Below, one piece after another: positions 1,333-19,583 of a stretch of DNA of 64,000 bases. The translations under genes and the position numbers were made by a program. Origin of the DNA: Marasmius tenuissimus. Lineage: Eukaryota; Basidiomycota; Agaricomycetes; Agaricales; Marasmiaceae. Under the pieces are notes generated by a model, which worked only from the letters and a program-made list of their open reading frames with translations, was not told the DNA's origin and did no database searches. Every line of letters starts with the position of its first letter. The stretch's first letter is position 1. The stretch lies in the NCBI GenBank assembly GCA_029532415.1, contig JAQOTA010000054.1:1860001-1924000 (forward strand). Reading direction: 5' to 3'.

Positions 1333-2086
1333 GCGAGGAGGAAGGTCCAGGGTCCTTTGGGGTCCTTTACATACTGATAGCATGGATCATTGTAAAGAAC
1401 GGAACTCAACAAATTGTGATCAGCCACTCCAAGGACTCGAAGATGTGAAGAACAAACTGTTACATTATATTCAATTTAGATGGTCCGATAGAGCCTGGGG
1501 ACTTCCCAAATCCTCTCGGATATCCACCGGATGGTACGTGTGGGAATGCGCCAACGCTCCGGAAATTCAGTGAAGACTAGTTCTAAAATAAGCAAGGCAA
1601 AACCTGCACGTTGGAGAGACATTTGACTACTGTTTTAGAATCACTTAGAATAACTTACGAGAGTCCGACTCCTCAGGTTGCCACTGAGTCGCAAGTTCGA
1701 GAGCTTGTCGCGTAAGAGTTGACGTTGAGTACTGACCTATTACACTCAATTCGTATGGTCACAGGTCACAGCCATTTTCGAAAACCCCGCCAATGATTTT
1801 TTCTCGATTTATCAGATTTTCTGGCAAAAAGTTTATCTCAAAAATGGTCACACGCCATACGAATTGAGTGAAATAGGTCAGTATTTGAGTCCTTCCTAAT
1901 AAGCTTCTCGGTACTCCTTATCATTGAGGTTGTGTTTTTGCCCTTGGTTGATGCTCAACGTTCAAGTTCCGAGTCTGGTATGTCCGATGGCTGTTATAGT
2001 CCGAGCCGGAACCAGGATGGGTGTGCTGCAGCCTGCATGGAGACCGCTCCCGCGAAGCGAGTGTCGGAGATTGATGGAGATTGACC
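1333..2086. other. Intergenic region upstream of the F-box gene
   Basis: No gene is visible apart from a possible first exon of the F-box gene near 1380-1427 (minus strand). The stretch holds the MITE at 1732-1881 and ends at the target duplication of the large transposon (ATTGACC at 2080-2086). Confidence 0.6.
1732..1881. mobile_element. 150-bp MITE with 27-bp TIRs and TA target duplication
   Basis: The ends are inverted copies, 1732-1758 and 1855-1881, beginning CTGACCTATT and differing at one of 27 positions. The similarity continues imperfectly inward for roughly 15 more bases (ATGGTCACA-like words). TA lies directly outside both ends (1730-1731 and 1882-1883), the target duplication typical of Tc1/mariner-type elements. 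No coding capacity. The near-identity of the arms suggests a fairly young insertion. Confidence 0.85.
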
Positions 2087-2104
2087 CCCAGTGAAAACCG
2101 ACAA
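2087..2104. repeat. Left terminal inverted repeat of the large transposon
   Basis: Eighteen bases starting CCCAGTG, perfectly complementary to 17911-17928. A diverged second copy of the terminus (CCCCCGGTGAAAATGACAC) lies about 125 bp further in, at 2212-2230. Confidence 0.92.
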
Positions 2105-2382
2105 AAATTTTTGGGTATTCCAGGGTATTGTGGGGTACTTTATCTTCGGGATTTCGTCATTTTTGTCGTTCCTGCATATTCCTGGCTATTGTAGAATATT
2201 TCGGGACGAAACCCCCGGTGAAAATGACACCATATGTTTGTATCACTTTACTCTCATTATGCAACCAGTCCCTTGGCGACCTGGACATGCCCCCGCAGCT
2301 GTAGCCGAGCATACCGCTGAATACTGCTGAATATTCTTGGATACCTCGCCTCCATCCCTTCCTAAGCGTCTCTGCCAACACC
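2105..2382. repeat. Left subterminal repeat region and transposase leader
   Basis: Contains several copies of a TATTCC-centred word (GGTATTCCAGGGTATT, CATATTCCTGGCTATTG, CTGAATATTC) and an iterated copy of the terminus near 2212. The same word in opposite orientation fills the right end. In CACTA-like elements such subterminal repeats bind the transposase; that role is inferred here. The transposase start codon at 2383 closes the region. Confidence 0.65.
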
Positions 2383-4014
2383 ATGCCAAAAGCAAGATCG
2401 AAACAGAATTCACGTTCGACAAAATCAACACCCGAAAAACCTAAGATAGAAGGTGTGCCTGCAGATCAGCCTTCCCCATCGGACGGGAAAGAGGCCATTT
2501 GCAAATGCTATAAGTCGTGTGGTGGACCAGGTGGAGTTGGGGTGTGGGTTTCTAGACCACAGAAGAGCCGGCACAAAAAACGGGATCAGACATACCTTGC
2601 TAGGGCAGGCACAATCTCACTTAACTTCGCTGGGACCGCATCAGGCTCAGGAATACCTCCATCCAACCCAATTGAGGGTGGTTCAATCACCCAAATTCCC
2701 AATCACTTCACCCCCATCGGGGAGGACCTGCCATTTCCGCTCAATAACGAAGACGACTTGATCAATCCCGATGTACCTGTTAGTATCCTGGGTTCATCTA
2801 CAAACAGATCAGGTACTAACATTCAAAACTTGTTGTAGAGTAATCCACACAATGATAATATCAATGATATGCCCACGAACGTCCCAGTTTCCCCTCACTC
2901 TACCGATACCCCTTCTGCAGAGGAAGAAGAATACGATCTGCTCGATCCAGATAGCCTGAATGACATTGAGTCCCAGCAACCCCAGCCAGAGCCTACGGGG
3001 GCTACGACAGAAACAGACTTTACTCCTGCACCCACAATCGAGTCATCTGTTAAGGAAATTCGGATAGCCGATCAATTTGTTCGTATGCTTCAGGCGGCCA
3101 CAATCAATGGTCCCGAGGCAGACATAGAACCTCTACCCTCCAATTTCGTACATCGATTGCAAAACCCTCCAACCGAACCACTGGTGCTCACTGAAGGCGA
3201 CAAACGCCTTTCGATAGAGGTGTTTTTGGCAGTCTCTAATGCATCGGAGAAGACCTACACCATGGTACGTGAGAGGATACGCAAATGCTATCCCGAAAGC
3301 AAGATGCTTTCTTACCATGAAGTGAAAAACACTGTCGCTGAACTCAGTGGTGTCACAGCCATTCAACGCGACATGTGTGTGAACTCATGTATGGGCTATA
3401 CGGGACCATTTCACGATCGTCTGAGCTGCGAATACTGTCAGCAACCAAGATTTGACAGTGGTGGTCAGGCGCGAAAGACATTCACCTGGATACCGATAGG
3501 ACCGCAGCTGCAGGCATTGTGGCGAAATCATGACAACGCGGAAAAACTGCACTACCGTCATAATTATACGAAAAAGGTCATGGAGGAGCTCGTTCAGGGA
3601 CAAGGAACCAGAAACACTCCTATAAGCGATTTCTTTGACGGCGAGGATTATCTGGCTGCCTTTGAGGAAGGAAAAATCAGGGAAGAAGACATGGTTCTTG
3701 TCCTATCCATAGACGGCGCACAGCTCTATCGAAACAAGGCGTCAGATTGTTGGATCTACATTTGGATCATCTACAACTACTCTCCCCAACTACGTTACAA
3801 AAAGAAGCACGTACTTCCCGGGGGCTTTATTGGTGGACCCAACAAACCAAAGCACATTGATAGTTTTATCTTGAGTGCTTTGTACCACCTCTCTGCCCTA
3901 CAGGCAGAGGGCCTTACTATCTGGGATGCCTATAAAGATAACACCGTCAGCATCAACCCGTTTTTCGCCCTGGCGTGTGCAGATGGACCATGTATGGCCT
4001 CACTTAGCGGTGTA

Positions 4015-6723
4015 AAGCGCCACTCGCGGTGTATAATAAAATCTAACTCGTAGGTCAAATCCTCCCAACACTCAAGAGTGTAGCTGAAGGGTGTGGGAAT
4101 CGGGGATCGGCGTTGATCGTAGGTTCCGCTCTTAGCCAGACTGCAATAGTAGGCTGAAGGAAATCTGACTCAAGAAACTATCCAACTAAGGTAGCTTCGC
4201 CTCTGAAACCAGTTCGGAGGTCAAAAGTGGGGTTCGGAAGAGAGGTTTATAGGTTGCTTCGGGGAGCGTAGAGTTTTGTTTGGTGCTTCGGAAGTGCGTT
4301 CTTAGGCTTCAACTAGCTTCAGAACCACTCGAACAGCGAGGGGTAACAAGACAATCAAATCGAACAATGGCAATAAGACTCCAATCAAGTCTGTCAATGA
4401 CCGAAGACCAACTGTCAACGGCGAACAATATCCTCAGCCCAATTAGCTTCGGAAGTTCAACAATAGCTCAGCCAGTCAAGTTGGCGTCGCAGACAAACAA
4501 TGCAAAGTCAAGGTCAAGCAAGTGTTCAATGGATTTTCTAGGTTTGGGCAAACAAAGTTCTATTCCGTTCTAATGTCTCTCCAGAAGCGCTCCCGAGTCA
4601 ACTGACTACCCAACAAGTGGAATAGCTTCGTATCCTCTGAATACTAATCGTACGGATTGCTTGGGGATTCTTGATGAAAAACCCCACTGCTTATATACCC
4701 TAGGAGGCTCTAATTCTACCTAATTGTACAAATATCGAATAAATCATGCCTCGGAGGCATAAACTACCTACTTTGGAATATACTTGGAGAGTTTTGTGTT
4801 TAATCTACGCTTTTGAACCCCAAAGTCAAAACCAATAATTTGCTTCGGAAGTATCATCAGCCTCGAACATTCTCTAACATTCTTTTCTTCCGGGTCTCTC
4901 CTATCAATGGTTCCGTTCTCCCTATCTGCCTCCGCAGCAGTGATGCTCCGGTTCCAGACTCTTCAATCATCATAGGTCATCCTGTTCTGTCTGCCTCCGA
5001 AGCATATACTCCCTTCATCTGAAGCAACGTACTGCCTCCGAAGTGCTAGTAGGTACCTATATTCCTCGAGTTACCCAGCCATCCGCAGCCAGGTCGATGT
5101 CCTTTCTGTAGGTCGGATAGCTCTGACGCCCTACCATCCATATGGTCGCCCCACTATATCCAATCCTGGTACCTTAGATACCGGGTAATAGTTCAATGGT
5201 TCAGCCAGAACTCCTACTCGATTCTTCGGTACACCATTCCTTTCTTTCTCAGTCCCCTGCCTTCCAATGCAGTCAAGCGCTGCGTATGGCTACCAGCACC
5301 AACTATGCCCTTTGTACAGTCAATATCTCCATGTATGAGTACAGTGGAGGTACAGCTATGGGGCAATTCCTTTGATCACTTCTCGATCATTGTTTAGCGC
5401 CCGGTGCCTGGTTCGGATCCACGCCTCCGAAGCGCTAATTTCCTGGTTTCCGAAGTAAAATTTCCACTTCTGCGGCAAGTCCAGAGGTCAGTATAAGCAA
5501 ATACTAGGTCGCCCCAGTTCCTTGCTTACTTTTTCCCCGAGCGCACTATGGCACGCTTGCACAATATTGAAGATCACTTCCGCAACTTGCTCTATAGTAA
5601 GTCTCTCAATTTTCTAAACTCCGAGGCGGCTTGCTGACTCCCTCTTCAGAGTTGTATAAGCTCTGGTGGTATCCAGAAGACTACTCTAATAAGATCAAGG
5701 AGCGCCGCATCATCCTACCCATTCCACTCGACGCAGAACGAGAGGCTATCCTCGGAATCATCTTCCAGCATTTCTTCCTCAGTCGCCATAGATCCATCTA
5801 CTGGGGCTACGTGATTCGTTACGACATGATCCAGGACGAAATCTATCTCTGCGAGGACACCTTTGACCACTTTATTCCTCACGATGCCAGGTCTGTTATT
5901 GACATGGTCGCTGAGTCCATTGCTCGAGTTGGTTTCCTCGACTTCAAAACCGCTCGTACTCCTGGAGCCGTCAACGCTTGGATCGACGCCGTCGTCAGCT
6001 GTGCTGAGTGCCCAGCACCTCCGAAGCTTGACTATACCAAGCTCTCGTTCTTCCAATATTCCCCTGTCATGGGTCGTTGGCTCTCTCGATCCTTTTCTTT
6101 CTATAATCCTATTTTATGCGATCCATTCTATACCGATTATCTAGATCATGAAACCTTCATTGATTCTTATTATCCTGAAGATTCCGACGTAGATAATTAC
6201 TTCGGTTGGGATGAGGTAGCTCTAGCCAATATGGATGACTAGCGTAACCTGTAGTATACCTAGTATACTTGAATCAATCATGCCTCCGAGGCGAGGCCTC
6301 GACCTTATACCAAGCTTCTGAGGCTCGACTTAGTCTCGCTTTCCGACCATCCATGCTTCCGCGGTGACCTCCTCTGTCTATCCCTACTAGTACGGGTCTT
6401 CGTTAAGTCTGATTCTGTTATTCTAATCCTTAGTACGATGCCTCCGAGCCACTGGAGATATTCCCTTGTTATGACTACAGGTCCTAGTCGTGCCTCCGAA
6501 GTGATACTTTCGTCAGTTATACGACTCCTACAGTTTTCAGAGATAAGGAGAGACGCCTCCGAGGCGCTATTCTTTCCTTATGCTAGGATCTGAGCCTTTT
6601 ACTAGCCGCTCGGGACTCGCTCTAGTACTCGTATTACCTAGTCATTTCTTATCTGTTTTATGCTAAAATCGCACAAAGTCAAGGCTCCGAAGCTGCTTTT
6701 TAATAGCAGGCGCTACAGCGGAT
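4015..6723 (+). mobile_element. 2.7-kb insertion element with dispersed palindromic words
   Basis: The element interrupts the transposase frame and is bounded by GTGTA on both sides (4010-4014 and 6724-6728), a 5-bp target duplication. Taking out element plus one copy restores the frame exactly. No convincing terminal inverted repeats (left end AAGCGCCACTCGCGG, right end GCTACAGCGGAT), no reverse transcriptase and no tyrosine or DDE recombinase motifs were seen, so it is probably non-autonomous or of an unfamiliar type. About 25 copies of a word close to GCCTCCGAAGC or its complement are spread through it. One spliced gene (5548-6242) is present. Apart from that gene and the repeats, 4015-5547 and 6243-6723 show nothing assignable. 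Confidence 0.8.
5548..6242 (+). CDS. Unrecognised 213-aa protein of the inserted element
   Basis: ATG at 5548 opens a 16-codon exon; a GT-AG intron at 5597-5649 joins it to a long exon ending at TAG 6240-6242. The product is rich in aromatic and acidic residues (YKLWWYPEDYSNKIKER near the start, a YYPEDSDVDNYFGWDE tail). No transmembrane segment, signal peptide, zinc cluster or catalytic signature of a known recombinase was seen. The gene itself holds one copy of the element's repeat word (CCTCCGAAGC near 6018), so repeat and coding sequence have evolved together. The intact frame and regular splice sites argue that it is or recently was functional. Its role in mobility of the host element is inference from position only. 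Confidence 0.6.
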
Positions 6724-9673
6724 GTGTAGGCCATCACGGAAAAGTCCACTGTCGCTATTATTGCCCATTGACAGGCAGGCACAAACCTGGTGCATCGATG
6801 TACTATCCCGCACGGATGAAGCCAAAGGACAATAATGCTCCCAGTTGCGATCATCCTAATGTGAAACTGGCGACTCTGCTCGGAGGTTTTACAGTAGAAG
6901 ATTGCATTCAGCGCTACGACTCGAACATGAATACTATGCGCCTCGCCACAGGCAAAACCGACTACGACCGGAAACGCCTCCAAACTGGTATATCGAAACC
7001 TTCCATTTTCAGTGGCCTGAACAGAAACCATTCCCTCCCTGTTCCAACATGCTTCCCTGGCGATATCATGCATCTGCTGTGTCTCAACATACCTGACTTG
7101 ATGATTTCCCTCTGGCGGGGTATGATAGATTGTGATACGAAGTTGGGTGATGATAAGGATTCTTGGTATTGGTCGGTGTTGAAAGGAGATGTGTGGAAGG
7201 AGCACGGGAAGCAGGTTGCTATGTGTATCCCATACATACCAGGATCCTTTGATCGTCCACCCAGAAATCCAGCGGAGAAGATCAACAGTGGTTACAAGGC
7301 CTGGGAATTTCTCATTTACTTCTTCGGCCTTGGACCATGTCTGTTCTATGGCGTCCTTCCCAACGACATTTGGGAACACTACTGCAAACTTGTTAGGGGA
7401 TTTAGACTTATGATGCAGGAGGGCATCACAGTACAGGAGATAGAGGAAGCCTCTCAACTTTTTAGCTCATTCTCGAATGATTTCGAGAAGATCTACATCC
7501 AACGAAAAGGCTCACGAATCCATTTCGTACGACCTTGTATACACGGCATCTCTCATATCCCTGCGGAGACTATCCGCCTTGGACCGTATATCATCTTCTC
7601 TCAGTGGGTCATGGAACGCACTATTGGAAACCTCGGAGAGGAAGTCAAAAACCATTGCAGTCCGTATGCGAACTTGGAGCAGAGAGGTGTCCATCAATGT
7701 CAGGTAAATGCTTTGAAGGCCCTGATACCCGATTTAGACCCTCCTGACAACCCACTCCCTCAGGGTGCTCTTGATCTTGGTGATGGTTATCTCCTCCTAC
7801 GAGCTAGAGACCGAACTGCACGTCGCTTAGCGGAAGTAGAGTACAAGGCTTGGAGATTGTATTGTATCTCCAAAGGCATGTCTGAGGAAGATTTGCCAGA
7901 TGTACACAAGGTTCGTTGTTGGGCAAAGCTCCGTCTTCCTAATGGCCAGAACGCTCGAGCGCGTTGGAAAGAGGAACCTAAGGGAATAGAGCATGTGCGT
8001 ATGTCTCGTCATGTCAAGGTAACGTTGAATTCATGCTGCAAACATAGTTGAGTGCTAACTATCTCTTCTGCGTCAAGTTGCAGCACAAAGACACTTTACG
8101 AGTAGGAGAGGTTCACTTTTACTTCGTAGACAAAATCGCCGGCAAGGAAAAGCATCTTGCCATCGTGTCGCTATTTGGGGAACCCAATAAAGAACTCTAT
8201 GAGAAGTCGAGCAAGACCTACAGCACAATGGAGCACCATCGTGACGTTGATGTTCATGTTGTTGAGGTCAAGTCCATACTCTCGGTCGTCATCATGGAAC
8301 CAGATCCTCGCTATAAATGCAGGATTCAGGACGGCTCCGAGAACAACCGTTGGTTTATGGTTGAGAAGCCTGGCCTCACAATTTCGGGATTACAAGGGTT
8401 TAATGAAGCAGAGGACGAGTCACTAGCCAGTCAGGAGGGATTATAATATTTTGTACTTGATTACTTTGTATATCTAGACTGTCGTTGACCCTCGTATAAA
8501 TGTACTGGCCACCACGCGCCTATTACCAGAGCATTAGCGCCAGCGACGTCACCGGCTGTTCAACATACCAACCGGCAGTTTCGCTTAGTCGCTACTTCCC
8601 TCTCTCTCTCTTACTTCCACCTGTCAAAATACATACGGGTTTGAAGGTGCCTAAAACCCAACTCATACTGGTTTTTTTCTCACCTGCTAATAAGCCAATT
8701 GAACCCGAAGGCCCTCTCGCGTCAGTCTCGAAAACTCTTGTGACTGCGGTGGAAAAATGGTTCGGAAATGAATTGTCTCAGGTCTGGATAAAAGGTACGC
8801 AAATTCTTATTCAATTCATGTGTTATCAACCAGCTGAACACATGAAAAATTTGGGTGCTTCATGAAGGTTGGGTGCTAGAACTTGTACCTGGCCTACCCA
8901 CCCCTCGTACATCGTAAATCCCCTCGGCGGCCACGACATCGGGCTCAAATCAACATGCTCGACTGCAAAGAACCCGACGGTGCTCGACTATTCTGGAAAC
9001 TTTAGTCCTCCTGAAAAATAGAGGCTATGAGAGTCGTGATGGTTCCCAGATCCGCCGTAAACACCATACATCCCCCTCTCAATTCCAGACGACCTACTCC
9101 CCGCGCAAACTGCAGCAAGACATACGTTCTGAGCTCTACCGACAGCGCTACGTCTCTATCAGACCAGCTTTGGTCTCACCTCCCTAGTCTCTTGGAGGCG
9201 CATGTGTCCTTACGCCAGTGCAACAACGTGGACCCCAACTCGACCGTATCCAAGAGGTGCATCGGTACCCCAGAGATGCATCGACCCCTCAAGCTTGTCA
9301 CTGAACCTCGTCTCTCACCGACAGTCCTATCTGACCTCGTCTCTGACCTAGATCCCCCATTTGTCGACTTCCGTCTGTCGTTGATGCAGACGCCATACCT
9401 CCAAACCACACCTTGGAATCTTCACAGCCCCGGCTCTCCGAGTTTGAAGCTCAACTGTCGAATCTTGGTAGTGGAAGAATGATTTTTGTTGGGCTGAACA
9501 GTTGGATCGAGTTGGATTGGTCGACGGCAGCGAGCTTCGATGACCATGTCATCTCGATACTCCGTCATATCTCCTTGTTAATGGTGCCAGTCGCTCGTGG
9601 TCGTTGACGACGATAGTCCCCACTGGATGCCAACGTTTTTATCGCTGTGCGAGGCGTTGGCAGCTTTGTTGTG

Positions 9674-9718
9674 AGCGGGTGCTTAAAATTTCAGACACGA
9701 AAATATAAGCGCCGGCGA
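9674..9718. repeat. 45-bp imperfect palindrome, copy 1
   Basis: Read on the minus strand it begins TCGCCGGCGCT and matches the copy at 10871-10915 at roughly 70% of positions, with the same arm-loop-arm form. It lies about 680 bp before the ubiquitin remnant. Confidence 0.55.
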
Positions 9719-10398
9719 CAATGTGACTACTTTCTCTCCCTACTCCAATGTCTGTGGCCCGAAGCACTCGTTCCTTTGAATACGCCATCATCAGCCTCAT
9801 TGTCGTCCAAATCATCTCCAAAACCACCTTCACTCTGTTCCGTCTCTCTTGACACCCAATATCACTCTCCATCCTTCGAAACTCCACCAACGTACCAATT
9901 ATGAGTTCCTCCACTCCCTCGCAAGATACGTCAGCTCTTTAGTCATCTTTGGCTGAGACGAAGGCGACGGCGACGACGACGACGAATGATAGCTTCGTCG
10001 AGGTTTGTGTCGAACTTTAACCCTCTGTGCCATCCATCTTCACATCCTCCGCCTACTCCTCGCCTTTCCCTTCCTCCGTCAGCAGATCCGGATCAGCCCT
10101 CTCTTTCCTGTTTTCCTTCGACCTCCGAATCGTAGCACCCAAAAACCCAAAATAATGGTGAATAGCGGCGGTATTTGACATACTCGTGAGGGAAAGTAGG
10201 GTCGGGAATGACTCGATGCGACCGTGGGTCCTTCGGCGAGTAAATGTTATCTTCGGGTTTTGGGCAGGTACATACACCCATGAATCTCTCGCATCTCTTC
10301 TCACCACCCTGCTCAGACGAGAAATTTCCACGTCAAATTCATAACGCCTGCTGAACAGGTCCTCCAACCCGGCTCTCGAGGTCTCCATGACGGCCTGT

Positions 10399-10757
10399 AG
10401 ATCTTTATGAAGACCCCCCGCCAGCAAGATTTTCTCCTCGGAGTCGAGTCGTCGGACACCATTGACAATGTCAGGGCGAAAATTCAAGACTGACATTCCT
10501 CCCTATCAGCGTCTCATCTTCGCCGGCAAACAGCTAGAGCATGGCGAACTCTTTCTGACTACAACGTCCAGAACGAGTCCACTCTTCCCTCCTTCCTTTG
10601 TTTTCTTCGCGACATTCGAGACCATCGTCTTGGAGGTCGAGTCGTCTGACACCATCGACAATGGCAAGGCGAAGATCCAGGACAAGGAGGGCATCTCCAA
10701 CCAGCAGCGTCTCATTTTCGACGGAAAGCAGTTGGAAGATGGCTGCACCCTTGCTTA
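10399..10757 (+). pseudogene. Polyubiquitin remnant (two degenerate repeats)
   Basis: Repeat 1 begins near 10399 with QIFMKTP-like sequence, then [15 protein letters not shown]. It loses frame around 10490 and continues as [13 protein letters not shown] and, after another shift, [13 protein letters not shown]. Repeat 2 starts near 10620: [33 protein letters not shown], then a stop soon after. These are the signature blocks of ubiquitin. The processing end LRLRGG is missing from both repeats, and frameshifts and substitutions (RTL replaced by CTL) show decay. The piece sits inside the transposon, so it looks like a captured host fragment rather than a resident gene. Confidence 0.85.
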
Positions 10758-10870
10758 AAGGGTCACTAGACTTGATGCGACATCGAAACGGATCACAGGA
10801 TCCACAAACACAATTAGGAGGGAGATTGGGAACTGGAAATCTTGTGGGAATCGTCATCGTTGGATGTTGG

Positions 10871-10915
10871 TCGCCGGCGCTAAAAATAACGCGTCAGATA
10901 ATTTTAGCGCCGGCG
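10871..10915. repeat. 45-bp perfect-arm palindrome, copy 2
   Basis: Arms 10872-10885 (CGCCGGCGCTAAAA) and 10902-10915 are perfect complements of 14 bases around a 16-base loop. TGG lies on both sides, a possible 3-bp target duplication, too short to be sure. Confidence 0.7.
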
Positions 10916-11437
10916 TGGATCTCAACGTGGAAAATGTACAACGCGGACAACACAAGGTCAATTGATGCCTCCTCCTCCTCCTCCTTGCTCTTGACCACCA
11001 CCACCCACCCTTCCTAAGACTTTTTTCTTACCTTTGGGCTCGCGGCCCACAACAGCCTTTCACCACGTTTCCCTACTCAACAACCATAACATTCTCATAC
11101 CCCCCCCCCCCACCCAGATGGAAAACCATACAAGGAGACATCCCGAATCTGCGCGTGTTATTCTTGATCTTGTAAATGTGGGGCTACGTGTCACTCAAAC
11201 AGGATCTGTGTGGAGGCTACCAGAGTCAGCGAGTGAACTCATGTCTTTCCTGGAAGAGGTGGCAGGTGAGACCCATCTTATCTAGTGTTGGTTTTGCCTC
11301 GTATTGACCACCTCCCAGCGGAACCTCAACAGCTAGACAATAATCACCTCGACAATAATCACCCTCGTCCTCTTTCTAGCCCTTTTTCTCATTCTCATTC
11401 TCTTTTTCATCCTCATCCTCGCCCTCGTCGCTACTCT

Positions 11438-14400
11438 ATGTCTGGTCCCATCCAAGGGCCCGATATCACTTCTCTCTCCCTGGAACTGAGAGAGTTACAA
11501 CAATTAGAATTGTCGTCACCACCTCCCGCATCATCACCGCCTCCCGCATTGTCGCCTATACTTCCAACATTTTCAACACTGCCGCCATCGTCACCACCAT
11601 CGTCACCATTGCTATCATCATCACCGCCATTACATCTGACTCCATCACCACCACCACTTCCCCCTCCTCCGTTGCGTCTCTCACTTCTCTCAATACCCCC
11701 ACCAACCTCACCAACCTCATCAACCTCTACGTTAACGCCAATCCCTGAGTCACCATCTACCCTATCATCCCCACTCACTCCTATCACATCTTCGGAGTCT
11801 TCAGACTCTGCAGAGTCTGCATTTGCGCTCTCGGAAAGCCTCTCGAGAGGTTGTAAACGTCGTAAACGCTTACGACGGGGAAGTCTTTCGGAACGGCGTA
11901 AACGCTCGCGCTGTTCTGATACGTATGAACCCGAATCCCCATCCGAAGATGATGGCGTCCGTGAAGCTTCCCGGGATTCCGATTTTTCGTACCCTTCACG
12001 ATCGTCATCTGCGGTCCCAAGTGCGATAGGGGAAGCACCCGGGGAAGCACAGAACCCTGTGGCCCGTTTGAGAGGAGGGGTGTGGCATCCCGACTGCAGA
12101 AGAAATTCGAGGCCACTGGATAGAGAAAGAGATGCGAGTGCCGACGTGGTGGACAGAGTTGTGCCCATCAACCGAGCTGAGGGCTCGTCTGGGGTTGATG
12201 ACACACAGGAGGACGACACACAGGAGGACGAGTTGGGTAACATTGCTCAGGAACAAGTGCAGCATATCGGTGACCCGAGGCTCGTGACTTGGATAGTCAA
12301 CAAGGCGAAGAAGCATAACCTTGACCCCAGATCCGGAACTACCTATGTCATCATGTACGAGCTGCACTCGAAGTCTATCACGGCAAGGCAGAAAGAATCT
12401 TGGGCGGACAACATGATTGGTGCGCTTGACGGAAGTCTCCTCAGATCTAACGCGAATGGATGTGACATCAGTCTCGCTGATGCCGCTGAAATGCTATGCC
12501 AAAGCAAAGCACGGGAGCGAGTTTTGAGCTTGCTGAACATCCTCTCGCTTGTGAACTTCAGAATGCGAGTGGAAAGGTACGTGAGTCTGGTTATGCGGGA
12601 TACTGCAACAACTGACGTTCACTTAGCATCTTAAGAGATACGCGGGGGACTAGGTTAGATGTCTACATGGACTTCTTGGCAAAGAAAGATGTGGGGAAGA
12701 AGGTCACGTATGTGACCTTCTGTAGATGGCTCAACCAAGGGACTACATTCGCAGAGCTTGCAGCCGCAGGCAGCGTATACTTCCTCTTTCTTATAGCAGC
12801 AGGCCATCTCAAGTCCAGATTTGGTCCCCTGACGATACAAGACACCTATCTCATATGCAGAGCCTTTTTGCGACCAGATGACGGAGGTAAGCTTTGTTAG
12901 TTTGTATACAGTATGGCTGCTCACTGATCCTTCATTAGATTCAAACCTCGGAAAGCTCGTGAAGGAGGTGTTTATCCCCGCGATATGTGCACTTCGCAAA
13001 CGTCTTTCTATATCTGTGGCCACCGCTATACCTTCGAAACTTCGAGAACACTTCAAACTAAAAGACGATATTATCTCCTGCACCGACTTGAAGCAGTCCC
13101 ACGAATACTACTCGTCTCTTCTACATAAGTGAGCCTCCAGTATTCGAACTCTCCTTTGGATCACCTACTAATTCCTGGGTAGTTTCTGGACACAACCTGA
13201 ACGAGATTGGAATGCGTGGAAGTGCTTTGAACTCACTCAATCCGAAGTAGGCTGTCCTCCCCCCCCCAACACTGTCCTGATCAGCGATTACTCTGTCGAA
13301 CGGTTACATACAGCGCCATTGGGCCAATCACCCAGACTGGACCTACCTGGACCCACGCTGAGCAGCGTAGTCTGCATATTGACTCAGTACGATCCTACCC
13401 ATGAACGCAACAAGTTTCCTTGTAAAAAGGATATGGATAGTCGCTTAGAGTGGACCCTCGAGAGGAGGGAATTGTTAAATTCGCCGAAATCATATGTTCG
13501 ACCAGCTTCAGTTGAGGAGTTCATCAAGAAAGTAGGTCCTACCCTTTGTCATTGGACATATGGGTCGTGCTAAAAACCACCAGCTCACCAACAACCTGCG
13601 GGACGGATACAGAGAAAACCCCGATGTGTATCTCTACTACGATGGAGACCAGTTGGGCCATCAGTATGTATCTCTCTGCTTTCTAAACCCGTTATTCTCA
13701 CCTGTGCCCTAGGGTTGTTGACATTCGCGACCGACATGGTGTAACGATCGCTCTTATTGGGAGCACGGTACCATGTGATCTGATGGCGGGTTTGTTAACC
13801 CTCTTTCAAGCTCTATTTCCCGAGTTGGAATACACCGATAGTTCCGAGGATCACACGAGGAAGTTCAGGTGCTGCCACCTAACCCTCTATAACCGCTATT
13901 CCATCAATGTAGGTCTTGAAAACAAGGGTGAAATTGGGTGACTGACATGCTCTGTTCGTTACATTCAGGGACACGATGCACCAAATGATGCGGACCCTTT
14001 CACTCTCCAGAAGGAAGGCAAACGCCCATGCGACGTGAACCAACTCACCCCACGATTTTCAGCCGAGTTCTACGAGCAAGAGACGCGAGCCACAAGACTG
14101 TTAAATGCAATAAAACCTATTATTGAGCATCTCGCACGGGTGGTACGTTTCGGAGCTCAGTTCTGTGCGAACTCTAACACAATATATGTTTAGATGCGGG
14201 AGAGGTTTCCCAAAGAGAACGGCGACCTGGTGGCCTTTATCAGTGGCCTCCCATTAGATGCTGCTTCTCCTGTGCATCCGTACGGAGGTGTTGCTGTCAA
14301 CCTGAATGCCGCAACAATAGTGCACCTCGATCCGAAGGATTTGAATCTGTGCTTGGTACTCGCTCTTCATGACTGCACAGGGGGAGAGCTGGTATTAGAA

Positions 14401-14595
14401 GGACCGGGTATCATCATCAAACTCAAGTCCGGAGATTTTGTTATCTTTCCGTCCAAGAGGCACAGTCACTATAATCTTGATTTCAAAGGTCTGAGAGTGT
14501 CGTTCGCATTTAGTACCGACATTGCGGCCAAACAGTGGATAAAGGATAACAATGGGTGGCTCTCGAATCAATATATGAAGTCTACTGATAGGTAA
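11438..14595 (+). CDS. TET/JBP-like 2-oxoglutarate/Fe(II) dioxygenase inside the transposon
   Basis: Eight exons fit GT-AG rules and keep frame: 11438-12576, 12627-12886, 12939-13128, 13183-13531, 13584-13663, 13713-13908, 13969-14142, 14194-14595, giving 929 aa. Residues 1-270 are low complexity (Pro/Ser/Thr, then KRRKRLRRGSLSERRKR, a likely nuclear signal). The middle (about 290-640) is a conserved-looking helical region of unknown fold. The last 133 residues hold the double-stranded beta-helix: HLD at about 840-842 (first iron ligands), GGELVLEGPG, LKSGDFVIF, a distal His at about 886 or 888 (RHSHYN), and Arg about 897 in GLRVSFAF for 2-oxoglutarate. All expected catalytic positions are present. 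Family members oxidise 5-methylcytosine or thymine in DNA; the actual substrate is not readable from sequence. Other 2OG oxygenases are less likely given spacing and context. Confidence 0.83.
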
Positions 14596-14777
14596 AACGA
14601 TGTCTATATTCTCCCCAATTTTAGTTGGCGTACTTAAAAATATCTGAACTACCTAACGAGCGAATGAGCGACTGATTGTCTGAATCCCATAAGCGTATGC
14701 GATCACCTGACCTGATAGAAAGACAAAACCGCGAAGAGGACAGCCACTGCAAATAACGTCACTTATTCCTGACTGCC

Positions 14778-17243
14778 ATGTCAGAGTACGAAGATCCCCT
14801 TCAGCGAACAGAATCTGTTAGCACTGTGATATCTCTTGGCGACTCCATCGTTGAAAGACAACGTGAAGAAAGCTTCTCTGGGCCGTGGACGTCACCAAAG
14901 CTACCTAGCCCTGATTCAGAGTTACATCTCCATTTCAATACCGGGATCTCCTCGACTTACGTTCAGGACAGCGGTGTGGCGGGCACAGTGTCGGCGACTT
15001 ACACTGACTCCGCTACTTACGTCCAAAACAGCCTGACGTCGAATACGTCGAATATACACTCGGCTTCTTACATTCAGAACAACTCGGCGACGGAGAACTT
15101 GGATACCCGTCTTATCTTAAAGGAAATCAATATGCTACGGTCAGTATATCATACCTTCAGCACCACATTTGATGTTGAACGTTGAACGTTAACCCCGAGT
15201 TTAGCCTTACCAGCGAAGCGATTCTCAACAGGCTCAGGCCAGATTTGCTGGCACCTGCTGAAGCTAGGGGTGATAGTAAAGCTCCAAATCCTTTCGCCAC
15301 CCAGGGCATGACTGGTTTACCGGAGCTTGACCAGAAGGACTATAGTGCCGTCAACTATTGGCACGTTGGCCAGTGGAAGGGTCCCCCCGTATCGAAGGCG
15401 GCTGATGCTGGAGAAGAGTTGGCGAAAGAGGCAGGGTCAAAGAAGAAGAAAAAGAAGAAAGCGGCCGAGAATCAGGATCAGGATTCGACCGTCGACACCA
15501 AGAAACAGGAACGTGAGTATGCAGCCCTGAAGTTTATTGAAGACCAGAACGGCATTCCTGTTCCTGGCGCACGTCTAGGGATGGTTACCAGGGATGCCCG
15601 GGCCTTTTTCAGGGCAAAGGTGCTTGCTGGGAAAATAACGTCTGGCGGATGGGACCAGGTCGAGCTCCCTGTGCGCATCGAGTATTATCAAGACATGCGA
15701 CTTCTGATTCCAGAGCTCCAGTTGTGCTTTGGTAATTGGAAAGCTGACCGAGTCGCAAAAGAGATCTTCTCAGGGTGGTGGCAGAGCCACCGAAAGGCCA
15801 TGGCTAAGGAAGAAGAGGCACCCTCATCCTCTGCTCTTCCAAAGCTGGTTAAGACACGCATCTCGACTGCTCCCAACTCAACCACTCCCATCTCGACGGT
15901 CTCAACTATTGCCGTCACTGTTGCTCAAGTTCCTTCAACTCCAACTCCAGCCTCAGATCCTATTCAGACTTCTATTCCTTTACCTCCGACTCCTGTCTCG
16001 ACTCCAGTCTCGCCTGTTCCTGTCCTACCGATCTCAATACCCACTCAGACAATGTCGACACCCATTCAGACAATGTCAACTACGATTCAAACGACTACAA
16101 TTCAAACGACTCCAATTCAGACGACTCCGACTCCGACGACTCCGATGACTCCGACTCCGACGACTCCGACGACCACCACGAGAATTATTCATGCCCCTCC
16201 TATTCTTATCTCGCCTGTCTCTGTTCCCCTCATACCGGTCTCATTCCCTATTCAGATGACGCCAACTCCCGTACAGACAACACCGATCCAGTCAAATCCC
16301 ATCACAACTCCTGTCCCTCCGACGACTCTTATTCCATCAACTCCAATTCCGTCGGTTCCGATTCTGTCGGTTCCATCCGAGACGCCTGATGATAGTGCTG
16401 ATGTCGCGATGGCAGACTCACTCCTGGCAAATACATCCTCGGCAACTCCTTCCCCGCCCACTCCAGCTCAGGCTACTACCTCCAGTAAACGACCCCGTTC
16501 GGAATCACTGATAGGCGTCAGCGAGGATGATCCCATGCTGTCAGAAGGTGCAGGTACAGATTCAGGTGGAGGACAAGATGCTGCTCCCCCCTCAAAGAAG
16601 GCAAGGTCTAGCGGCCCAAAGATACCACGTATCAAGGTGACGTATTCCAAAAATCTATCTGTTTATCCTAAATGTGATTCTGATATGCTCGAACTTTAGT
16701 TGAAAGTGAATCTGTATGAGTTACCTTCCCTCTTGACATATTGACAGCGTACTCACGGCCTTTCTTTTCTCTTATACTAGGTACCCGGAATGCGAAGAGG
16801 ACAATAATACCCAACAGGATCATGATATGGACGAAAATCCTGAGGGAGCCGACCTCAGTAACCACGAAGACCCTTCTTCTGGACCATCCGGAGCAACTGC
16901 CGAAAAACTGAAAAGGCCGGTGCCCTCTAGATACAACCCACAGAAGTTTCTTCAGTTTGGGATCGAGGGCACAGCTCAGTAAGTACACCTCGAATCAACC
17001 CACACACGTTCATTCAGTCACCTTTATTTCCTCTCACAGGAATCTCGCGAAAAGATATTACAGTCAGAAAGTGCGCCCAGAATTACCCGCCAACGAGATA
17101 CCTCAGGGTGATTACTTTACATGGTATCTAAAAACGATGGAGGAAGATCTATGGGTGGTACGCCTACGAATCTTCCTATCTTATTGCAATATCTGACATC
17201 TGTGTAGGGCTTCCATCGTGCCGCGAAGGCGAACGGAAAGTAG
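14778..17243 (+). CDS. Lysine-rich accessory protein of the transposon
   Basis: Six exons: 14778-15139, 15205-16636, 16700-16713 (14 nt), 16781-16978, 17040-17157, 17208-17243, giving 719 aa in one frame. It starts 182 bp after the oxidase gene, same strand. The N-terminal part has a repeated S-[AS]-[ST]-Y-[VI]-Q pattern (TYVQDS, TYVQNS, SYIQNN). Around residues 200-210 is GSKKKKKKKAA, a probable nuclear signal. The conserved-looking core follows (RIEYYQDMRLLIPELQLC, GNWKADRVAKEIFSGWW). Then comes about 190 residues of Thr/Pro repeats and an acidic C-terminal part. I recall similar W-rich cores in mushroom hypothetical proteins but cannot name a domain. DNA or chromatin binding together with the oxidase or transposase is inference from basic character and linkage. 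Confidence 0.72.
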
Positions 17244-17910
17244 TTTTTGTAGCCCAGGTATGATCTTCTTCAGCGGGGACAACCAGACAACTCAACGCCA
17301 CATAAACAGTTCGAACTTTCGCTACGATCATTACAGTGATAGCAACATCGATGATTGCATCCCACGGAGATCAGAACGTCGAAACTGTTTTCTTGTTATT
17401 TACACATATTCCTATCTAGTAATGCTAGCGATATCATGGCGCTGTCGTATCGTAGAATAGGTATCCATAGTCAATGCATTCAATTATTATCAATACCTGA
17501 CAATATGTGGACGGGCGAATCAAAGCAATCCAGAGCGAATAGCAGGGAATAGCTCGCATTTAGTCAATTATCAATATGTGTGCATAGCTCGCAGTTTGTC
17601 AGTCATCAATATGTGAGAATACCCCACAGTCTCTTGATATCGTTTCAAAAGAATAGCAGAGAATAGGTCTAATAGGTTGACTCGAAATAGCTGGGAATAG
17701 GTCCATCTGTAAACATAGGGAATAGCAGGGAATAGCTCGCAGCCTGCCATAACAGACTAGGTTATGTCGCTCTCAAATAGCTGAGCATGGTTCGATATTG
17801 CGCAAACACCTATATCAGGGCCATTCTCAGCTATTTGTGGCCTTTTTTGCGCGACATCGCTTATACACATCAAAAAAATAGCCCAGACTACCTGAGAATG
17901 CCTGAGAATA
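17244..17910. repeat. Right subterminal repeats of the large transposon
   Basis: From about 17440 to 17910 the word GGGAATAGC or GAATAGG recurs (for example AGCAGGGAATAGCTCGCA near 17535 and again near 17725), as does ATCAATATGTG, and GAGAATGCCTGAGAATA just before the terminus. These are inverted relative to the TATTCC words at the left end. No gene is seen here. Confidence 0.75.
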
Positions 17911-17928
17911 TTGTCGGTTTTCACTGGG
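17911..17928. repeat. Right terminal inverted repeat of the large transposon
   Basis: TTGTCGGTTTTCACTGGG, complement of 2087-2104, followed by the target copy ATTGACC at 17929-17935. Confidence 0.92.
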
Positions 17929-17935
17929 ATTGACC

Positions 17936-19583
17936 TCCCGGGATGGCCTATCAGTTCGGCTGAGTGAGCGTGGATGAAACGATGATGGCTAACAAAACAG
18001 AGGAGGCGGCAATGAAGATGTCGTCAGTTGATTGTGGTATTAAGGAGTCACCACGGTTGGCGGCACATTGCGGTGGCAGATCCATCGAAGACATGTTGAT
18101 GGCTGGTCGACTATGATTGGGCAAGGACAGGCCAGGACCCAGGTGTGTTAGATTCCGGTCAAAAAAAGAGGCTGCCCAAGGTCGCAGCGCCGAGCGTCTA
18201 GTCGGTGGAAATTGTCGGTTGCTGCTGGCTTAGGTAAAATAGGGACATGAAGGGCACTTCATCAATCACCTTTGAATCTGGAAAGTGTGCAGATAGGTGT
18301 GGATCAGAGGGGACTCGGGAGCCAGCCTGCATCTGGAATGAGGTTTTCGTCAAATAGTTTGGCCCATACTATATAGCCAACGGTGGAATATAGAGCACCA
18401 TATAGCCATGGTTGACCATATAGCGCTATATAGCCATCAGCAAATAGCCGCGGGCTCAATCTCCAAATCGGGGTGAAATTGACCAGAACGACCAACATGG
18501 GTCGCCATGACCCTTTCTAACCAGGGTTCTGTTGTAACAAATCTAGCTGGGCTTGCGGTCAAATACGGAAAAATGATCCTGACCTATTCAACGTCCAGGG
18601 CTCGTAACTCACAGTTGTCCACTCTGGTTCTTACTTAAATCAAAAGGATGTCCCTCAGTGTCCCGCCACTTTCCCTGTTGAACACATCCATGATCCTGTT
18701 ATAAGTAGAACGGGATTCATTGGACTTGGAAAATTTTATATCCCCTGGAAGGTACGTTCCATTATCTACACGCTGTCCGTGAAGTATGTGTTGACTTTAT
18801 CACTTTTTCTTCCCTCACCCTACTTGTTTGGGTCCTCAGCCGGTGCGAATACAGTCGTCATCCCACTACTCTGTATGTATATTGTCCTCTCCGATTCAGT
18901 CGTATAGCCTAGTGTGCACTATGTACAGTATTACCAGTGATAAATCAAGGATTCACTGTTTTTACCCCCAAGCAAAACATCCTGCAATGCAACAATCAAA
19001 TGAGGCGGCGTGTCGAAAATTCTTACGGAAAATGCTAAATCGGGTGGCCCTGTCCATAGCCGAGAGGGCTATATAGCGCGACAGAGCCACTCAATTGGGG
19101 CAATATAGAGCTATATAGACAGGGGTCGGCTCTGCGGGCTCTGTGGCTCTGTGGGCTATATACTGCTATATAGCCCATGCCCCATTTCCAGATGTGAGCC
19201 AGCCTGCGGGGCCGAAGTGTTGCTCCGTAATTCGATGACGTCATGGCCGATGACACTGTGGGGTCCTTGTAGATCCTCAGTGCAGAGGTTATTCGTGGCT
19301 GGACGATTGGAGGCTCGGAGGCTCGGTTTAATTGGTGTGAGTTGGTAAGGGTATCCCGGTGTAGCATCAGTACAAATTTTGACGTCTTTCCATACATAGC
19401 ACCATACTTAAGTAAGTATGTACATACATCTGCCACTGTACGTGAATCATGAGCCGGAAACACTGTACTAATCGATATACACTATTGGCATATGTGTAGG
19501 GAAAGATACAACTAATAGATACAACAAATTTTCACCGTTATGGTCACATCACTCGGTCCAGCTATCATGACCTATCGACATAT
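17936..19583. other. Gene-free stretch right of the large transposon
   Basis: No gene is seen. It holds the TIR element 18330-19194. The remainder (17936-18318 and 19207-19583) has no assignable content. Confidence 0.6.
18330..19194. mobile_element. Non-autonomous TIR element with CTATATAG subterminal repeats
   Basis: Ends CATCTGGAATGAGG (18330-18343) and the complement of CATCTGGAAATGGGG (to 19194) form short inverted repeats. GAGCCAGCCTG stands outside both ends (18319-18329 and 19196-19206), a direct repeat of 11 bases, which would suit a MULE-like element (9-11 bp duplications). CTATATAG or CATATAG words cluster just inside each end (18372-18436 and 19067-19175) and are absent from the middle. 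There is no open frame of note. One extra base before the right-hand direct repeat leaves the exact end uncertain. Confidence 0.6.

What the first reader, a model, noticed from the sequence alone, without database searches (positions are those of the whole stretch)
2087..17928. A 15.8-kb DNA transposon with matched termini, target duplication and three plus-strand genes
Eighteen-base identical inverted ends, ATTGACC outside both, and inverted subterminal repeats bracket a transposase, a TET/JBP-type oxidase and an accessory gene. TET/JBP genes near transposons are known in mushrooms, mostly beside KDZ transposases. A complete unit with both ends and a Tnp2-type transposase is a clear case of an oxidase as transposon cargo.
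Basis: partly seen in the sequence, partly recalled or inferred. Interest (0 to 1): 0.88.

Follow-up and report, generated by a model that had tools for sequence, protein, structure and literature searches.

The report
Mushroom transposon carrying a TET-like oxidase
A jumping gene in a Marasmius mushroom carries, besides the enzyme that moves it, a gene resembling the TET enzymes that help erase DNA methylation marks, which may let it escape silencing; such elements are already known in fungi, but this family has unusual ends, a 7-base target duplication and its own internal signal sequence.

Summary
Window 2087-17928 is the window's only exact inverted 18-mer pair 0.5-20 kb apart and has a 7-bp duplication (ATTGACC) outside it; 20 simulated windows gave none. 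The same genome (Marasmius tenuissimus) holds four more full-length relatives, each with its own exact 7-bp duplication. Of 15 copies examined, shorter ones included, 12 have exact duplications, consensus NNT(G/C)ANN. One sister copy has a paralogous empty site.

Corrections: 2706 bp of the 15.8 kb is a nested, LTR-like insert that breaks this copy's transposase; the 13,130-bp C7 copy lacks it. The oxidase gene model (nine exons, 1018 aa) is open throughout.

The oxidase's catalytic exon is under strong purifying selection, and 7 of 7 close oxidase copies lie 7.9-10.6 kb downstream of a close transposase. A 45-bp internal palindrome is, by two pattern searches, confined to this family.

TET+ fungal transposons were catalogued by Kojima (2025), including relatives of this transposase. 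Different here: 7-bp duplications, CCCAGTG ends, a divergent HxD oxidase whose Tet_JBP match stays below Pfam's cut-off. New variant of a known kind. Anti-silencing is the likely role, inferred, not shown.

The parts
2080..2086 (.). 7-bp target-site duplication, left copy (ATTGACC)
2087..2104 (+). left terminal inverted repeat CCCAGTGAAAACCGACAA
2383..8446 (+). Tnp2-type transposase gene, exons 2383-2772, 2839-4010 continued at 6722-8018, and 8078-8446; broken by the insert at 4011-6716. Coordinates transferred from the model of the uninterrupted C7 copy
4011..6716 (+). nested 2706-bp LTR-like insert (TG..CA ends, AGCGG duplicated at 4006-4010 and 6717-6721), probably a solo LTR; not part of the transposon proper
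   Evidence: 41 matches in the genome, 35 of them (this one included) covering at least 2691 of 2706 bases at 92-100%; same-strand pairs about 17.5 kb apart on C7, C30 and C40 and three copies 7.0 kb apart on C5; only 40 of 204 candidates were scored
9675..9719 (.). internal palindrome, copy 1
10401..10755 (+). degenerate ubiquitin fragments (two partial units), seen only in the window and C7 copies
   Evidence: ubiquitin query typed from recall
10870..10914 (.). internal palindrome, copy 2, about 200 bp upstream of the oxidase start codon
11118..14595 (+). TET/JBP-like 2OG-Fe(II) oxidase gene, nine exons (11118-11265, 11319-12576, 12627-12886, 12939-13128, 13183-13531, 13584-13663, 13713-13908, 13969-14142, 14194-14595), 1018 aa, no premature stop; the first splice acceptor was chosen among several open options
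14778..17240 (+). third gene, several exons, function unknown, right end approximate
   Evidence: sequence; recognisable in C10 (34% over 516 columns) and C7b (39% over 201 residues); in C5a seen only as 65-69% nucleotide matches over that region
17531..17900 (.). subterminal AATAG-type repeats, right side
17911..17928 (-). right terminal inverted repeat
17929..17935 (.). 7-bp target-site duplication, right copy (ATTGACC)

Best explanation
The feature is one copy of a multi-copy DNA transposon family of Marasmius. Shown: matched ends, 7-bp target duplications at NNT(G/C)ANN, dispersed copies, a precise empty site for a sister copy, and a Tnp2-type DDE transposase, a TET/JBP-like oxidase and a third gene that stay together in diverged subfamilies. 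Inferred: the transposase inserts the element through its ends; the oxidase oxidises 5-methylcytosine (or another modified base) on element DNA and so counteracts host methylation, keeping the element expressed and mobile; the internal palindrome and the subterminal repeats are binding sites for element-encoded proteins. The window copy has an insert in its transposase gene, so it could move only with transposase from other copies.
For: Ends and TSDs. Five full-length copies (C28, C7, C10, C7b, C5a), each with an exact 7-bp TSD. Empty site for the C7 copy, 96% identical over 501 bases and read straight through, with one mismatch inside the single target copy. Two identical 1681-bp copies with different TSDs. 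Oxidase beside transposase in 7 of 7 close copies, same strand. Purifying selection on the catalytic exon against C10: dN 0.030, dS 1.21; transposase main exon dN 0.141, dS 1.60. HxD..H..R residues invariant in the 7 oxidase sequences aligned; H-to-R spacing of 9 as in CcTet. CpG transitions are 57 of 80 differences between the window and C7 copies, as 5mC deamination would give. Anti-silencing is the role proposed for such genes by Kojima (PMC12730594).
Against: No biochemical or methylation data. The Tet_JBP match is below the Pfam cut-off in 7 of 7 full-length proteins. No TET chain was matched in the PDB by sequence or by profile. A Tet_JBP search of the genome found one sub-cut-off place, not in this element. 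Both structure predictions were of low confidence. The CpG excess has no control from outside transposons. 3 of 10 close transposases have no close oxidase in the search, so the oxidase may be dispensable. Two of 15 copies have no TSD and one has 6 of 7.
Confidence: 0.7

Rival explanations
1. The oxidase modifies DNA for a purpose other than demethylation: it makes an oxidised or hypermodified base that marks the element, helps cleavage or recruits factors, or it acts on 6mA or thymine.
For: The oxidase is diverged from characterised TETs. CcTet acts on 5mC and 6mA (PMC11040006, listing and passages), and Kojima notes that other activities cannot be excluded. By residue counting, the CcTet positions Gly331 and Asp337 are Asp and Val here.
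Against: It is the same enzyme superfamily as enzymes acting on 5mC, and the CpG-transition excess hints that 5mC is present in the element.
Confidence: 0.22
2. The oxidase is a passenger: a captured gene with no benefit to the element.
For: Some relatives of the transposase lack a close oxidase (3 of 10), and elements of this family do pick up host fragments, here ubiquitin.
Against: The oxidase recurs at the same place in four diverged subfamilies and is under stronger constraint than the transposase. No stop lies inside any of the 10 oxidase matches.
Confidence: 0.06
3. In the window copy, oxidase activity or a chromatin boundary protects the oxidase half from methylation while the transposase half decays.
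For: CpG losses in the window copy: 38 of 280 sites in 2087-9850 against 8 of 437 in 9851-17928 (Fisher p about 5.5e-10).
Against: Differences other than CpG losses show the same contrast (19 in 5052 bases against 4 in 8078; odds ratios 7.6 and 8.4), so the right half is simply less diverged, probably by gene conversion or recombination between copies.
Confidence: 0.02

Closest known systems
TET+ EnSpm and TET+ Plavaka transposons of fungi (Kojima 2025, PMC12730594; parts 1-5 of 7 and legends read, supplements not)
   Same: TIR DNA transposons with a CMCT-type DDE transposase and a TET/JBP-type gene, in Agaricales among others; same proposed role.
   Different: Published TSDs are 3 bp (EnSpm) and 2-3 bp (Plavaka), with CAC..GTG and CATCA..TGATG ends; here 7 bp and CCCAGTG..CACTGGG. 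The Agaricales TET genes of those lineages are PE type (HxE); this one is HxD. The element's transposase has no Plavaka Pfam match.
TET+ Kyakuja (KDZ) transposons of mushrooms (same paper)
   Same: 7-bp TSDs; TET/JBP gene; Agaricomycetes.
   Different: Kyakuja are described as having CA..TG ends and no TIRs. Here there are 18-bp TIRs and a tnp2 transposase; Pfam listed no KDZ family for it.
CcTet of Coprinopsis cinerea (PMC11040006, passages)
   Same: HxD..H..R signature; H-to-R spacing 9 in both; HxD-to-H 48 here, 50 there.
   Different: No sequence match found in the PDB search; Gly331 and Asp337 positions are Asp and Val here by counting.
VANC anti-silencing proteins of Arabidopsis VANDAL transposons (PMC5735166, abstract and outline only)
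   Same: A transposon-encoded protein proposed to undo DNA methylation on its own family; element-specific motifs in non-coding DNA.
   Different: VANC binding and methylation loss are shown by experiment. Here nothing is shown, and the protein is a predicted oxidase.

Membership tests
cut-and-paste (DDE) DNA transposon | terminal inverted repeats, constant-length target duplication, dispersed copies, empty site | tested here: met
   the empty site is for the C7 copy, not the window copy
tnp2 / EnSpm-like (CMCT) transposase | Pfam Transposase_21 above its cut-off | tested here: met
   C7 copy 40.6 bits, cut-off 28.6; window 5' part 37 bits
[quoted passage not shown]
   D422, D512, C531, C535, H795, H799, E819 are invariant in 14 sequences: the H pair is H(3)H, but the C pair is C(3)C. 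Catalytic roles are my assignment
EnSpm / CMCT transposons as published | 2-5 bp TSDs and, mostly, CA..TG termini | tested here: not met
   7-bp TSD in 12 of 15 copies; ends CCC..GGG
Plavaka | Pfam PF18759 transposase domain | tested here: not met
   no match; of the 126 matches of PF18759 in the genome none overlaps the ten close transposases
KDZ / Kyakuja | KDZ transposase homology | tested here: not met
   no KDZ family listed up to E 1 for the transposase
TET/JBP dioxygenase | HxD..H..R metal and 2OG residues | tested here: met
   invariant in the 7 sequences aligned; spacing compared with CcTet
TET/JBP dioxygenase | Pfam Tet_JBP above its cut-off | tested here: not met
   15.2-31.8 bits in 7 full-length proteins, cut-off 34.9; 7 of 7 C-terminal pieces match at E <= 1, best 2e-8
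TET/JBP dioxygenase | TET fold | tested here: inconclusive
   models of pLDDT 33 and 37; no fold search was made
TET/JBP dioxygenase | oxidation of 5mC | not testable with these tools
   needs an enzyme assay
PE-type TET/JBP (Kojima) | HxE in place of HxD | tested here: not met
   H559 and D561 are invariant
AG-type TET/JBP (CcTet-like) | Asp at the CcTet 337 position | tested here: inconclusive
   Val by residue counting from HxD; no structural alignment was possible

The most novel reading that the evidence does not exclude
The family is a self-targeting anti-silencing transposon. Its oxidase, with or without the third protein, binds the element-specific 45-bp palindrome and removes methylation only from its own family, including non-autonomous copies that kept the palindrome. 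It would be an enzyme-based fungal counterpart of plant VANC, carried by a Tnp2 lineage that makes 7-bp target duplications.
Probability: 0.2. Interest if true: 0.85.

Novelty: new variant of a known kind. Interest (0 to 1): 0.55.

Why it matters
[quoted passage not shown] This family offers several full-length copies, transposase copies without a close oxidase, non-autonomous copies with and without the palindrome, and a defined element-specific candidate binding site, so the anti-silencing idea becomes directly testable. It also adds a tnp2-type element that makes 7-bp target duplications at NNT(G/C)ANN.

Tried and rejected
Methylation boundary inside the window copy: rejected, because differences other than CpG losses show the same left/right contrast. 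Ubiquitin as functional cargo: rejected, degenerate and found only in the window and C7 copies among those compared. KDZ or Plavaka identity: rejected. Empty site for the window copy in its own genome: only its own two flanks and a repeat in the left flank matched; the C10 flanks were joined and printed but not searched. Structure of the oxidase: two predictions of low confidence, so no fold search was run. Distant oxidase relatives with an alignment: only two proteins, both already known. CpG observed/expected ratio: 0.76-0.90 in the full-length copies measured against 0.95-1.02 in the window flanks (4-kb bins 0.89-1.04), a weak difference. Print searches on 7-bp TSDs in CACTA/EnSpm-like fungal elements and on Plavaka, KDZ, TET and Tnp2: I saw the listings and, beyond them, only the papers named in the report; no matching element appeared. 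Supplements could not be read, so Kojima's Table S1 was not checked.
Full report
WHAT IS THERE. The window lies in contig C28 (1860001-1924000) of a 71-Mb, 70-contig assembly. The best oxidase hit is named Marasmius tenuissimus and lies on a contig of exactly the length of C10 (6,714,940 bases), so the host is taken to be that fungus, a mushroom reported among the causes of cacao thread blight (PMC8581569, search listing). The ends 2087-2104 and 17911-17928 are exact inverted repeats flanked by ATTGACC on both sides. This is the only exact inverted 18-mer pair 0.5-20 kb apart in the window; 20 simulated windows gave none.

COPIES. The exact terminus occurs 9 times in the genome (reversed control 0). 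With up to 3 mismatches it occurs 111 times against 56 for the control, so about half of the loose matches are chance. Paired ends give a 13,130-bp copy on C7 (about 99% identical to the window copy), a 14,471-bp copy on C10 (about 74% where aligned) and shorter copies of 1.4-3.7 kb. Two more full-length copies were found through their oxidase genes: C7b, C7:1867497-1880484 (12,988 bp), and C5a, C5:2493291-2507117 (13,827 bp). Of the 15 copies whose flanks I compared, 12 have an exact 7-bp duplication, one (m_C7) has 6 of 7, and two (m_C30b, m_C30c) have none. In the 12, position 3 is T in all, position 5 is A in 11, and position 4 is G or C in 11. The target of the C7 copy exists uninterrupted at C39:641695-642193, 96% identical, with a single target copy that differs by one base; four more distant relatives of the same repeat (71-75%) are also uninterrupted. 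Two 1,681-bp copies with different duplications are identical, which indicates recent movement.

CORRECTIONS. The window copy carries a 2,706-bp insert (4011-6716) in its transposase, with 5-bp duplications and TG..CA ends. The genome search lists 41 matches to it, 35 of them (this one included) nearly full length at 92-100%; only 40 of 204 candidates were scored. Same-strand pairs about 17.5 kb apart on C7, C30 and C40, and three copies 7.0 kb apart on C5, are what LTRs would give; here it stands alone, so I call it a probable solo LTR. The C7 copy lacks it and has an open transposase model of 1,075 codons.

GENES. The transposase matches Pfam Transposase_21/tnp2 (40.6 bits, cut-off 28.6) and 1278 proteins, of which the best 120 were listed; the named ones among them are Agaricomycetes, as far as I recall their taxonomy. 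In 14 aligned proteins D422, D512, C531, C535, H795, H799 and E819 are invariant. The spacing resembles RAG1/CACTA as I recall it, but the cysteine pair is C(3)C, not the published C(2)C. It is not Plavaka: PF18759 has 126 matches in this genome, none overlapping the ten close transposases. The oxidase is a nine-exon, 1,018-codon model without a premature stop. Six homologs were found, two in M. tenuissimus records and four in Marasmius sp. AFHP31; only a capped candidate set was scored, so this is a lower bound, and a second search with their alignment returned only two of the six. The HxD..H..R residues are invariant. The match to Tet_JBP is below the curated cut-off in all 7 full-length proteins; 7 of 7 C-terminal pieces match it at E <= 1, best 2e-8. 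Sequence and profile searches of the PDB found no TET, and a Tet_JBP search of the genome found one sub-cut-off place outside this element. The TET/JBP assignment therefore rests on weak profile matches plus the catalytic signature. The third gene was scanned only as two single-exon frames, without a match above cut-off; it is recognisable at 34% in C10 and 39% in C7b.

CARGO OR CORE. The oxidase query gives 10 places, none with an internal stop. Seven are close (87-95%), and all seven lie 7.9-10.6 kb downstream of a close transposase on the same strand. The other three are C69 (64%), C3 (63%) and C12 (34%). Conversely, 7 of 10 close transposases (82-100%) have a close oxidase; C61:250922, C7:883372 and C10:5250223 do not. 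The ends of the C23 copy and the right end of the C5:221039 copy were not read. Against C10, the catalytic exon has dN 0.030 and dS 1.21, the transposase main exon dN 0.141 and dS 1.60. Oxidase exons 7 and 8 show lower dS (0.34 and 0.57), possibly from recombination; several values, among them the catalytic exon against C7b, were saturated or not computed. The oxidase is thus a core gene of the family rather than an occasional passenger.

CIS ELEMENTS. A 45-bp palindrome (about TCGCCGGCGCTTAAAATTTCACATACGAAATTTTAGCGCCGGCGAC) lies between transposase and oxidase in the C28/C7, C10, C7b and C5a subfamilies, one to three times per copy, and in two of five non-autonomous copies examined (C30s and m_C49; not m_C7, m_C5, m_C10). 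In the window one copy ends about 200 bp upstream of the oxidase ATG. Its half-site WWTTTTAGCGCCGGC occurs 9 times in 71 Mb (control 0): eight lie inside copies of this family, one of them in the C5 copy whose right end I did not read, and one at C61:264670, 15 kb from a family end on that contig. A whole-palindrome pattern gives 8 matches (control 0), all in copies of the family, the same C5 copy included. These are exact patterns; looser versions elsewhere were not searched. The function is inferred.

METHYLATION TRACE. Between the window and C7 copies, 57 of 80 substitutions are CpG transitions, while CpG makes up about 11% of bases; 46 are losses in the window copy and 11 in C7. This fits 5mC deamination but lacks a control from outside transposons. 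Differences cluster in the left half, which looked like a methylation boundary; differences other than CpG losses cluster equally, so I reject that reading.

LITERATURE. Kojima 2025 (PMC12730594; parts 1-5 of 7 and the figure legends read; supplements not) describes TET+ transposons in 11 lineages, among them EnSpm (3-bp TSDs), Plavaka (2-3 bp) and Kyakuja (7 bp, no TIRs), and proposes escape from methylation-based silencing. The word Marasmius does not occur in its main text. Iyer et al. 2014 is not held and is known here only through citation. CcTet residues are from passages of PMC11040006; VANC from the abstract of PMC5735166; oxidised 5mC in transposons of Laccaria and Coprinopsis from passages of PMC8889193; two Marasmius oreades papers were searched for terms only (PMC9674265, PMC8290104). 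The element is a new variant of a known kind: same theme, different ends, TSD length and oxidase subtype.

Noticed in passing
window 1737-1883: A 147-bp palindromic repeat in the left flank, outside the element, with 38 other full or partial matches in the genome; looks like a MITE.
   Followed up: no
window 4011-6716: The nested insert is a probable solo LTR of an abundant retrotransposon; GCCTCCGAAG-like words recur inside it.
   Followed up: partly
window 10401-10755: Degenerate ubiquitin fragments between the two palindromes, in the window and C7 copies only among those compared: probably a captured host gene piece.
   Followed up: partly
window 9851-17928 against the C7 copy: This half is far less diverged than 2087-9850 in all classes of difference, which suggests gene conversion or recombination between copies.
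   Followed up: partly
G000:C69:645551-653059: An oxidase 64% identical to the query lies about 7 kb downstream of a transposase only 32% identical: perhaps the oxidase lineage is shared by a second transposon lineage. The DNA could not be fetched.
   Followed up: no
G000:C7:876540-885393: Facing family-like ends (2 and 3 mismatches) enclose a close transposase with one stop and no close oxidase: a candidate oxidase-less element of about 8.9 kb.
   Followed up: no
G000:C5:221039-240787: A family copy with a Plavaka match (C5:227999-228412) between its left end and its transposase: probably another nested insertion.
   Followed up: no
window 18382-18437 and about 19060-19170: Repeated ATATAGCC-type short units in the right flank, outside the element.
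   Followed up: no
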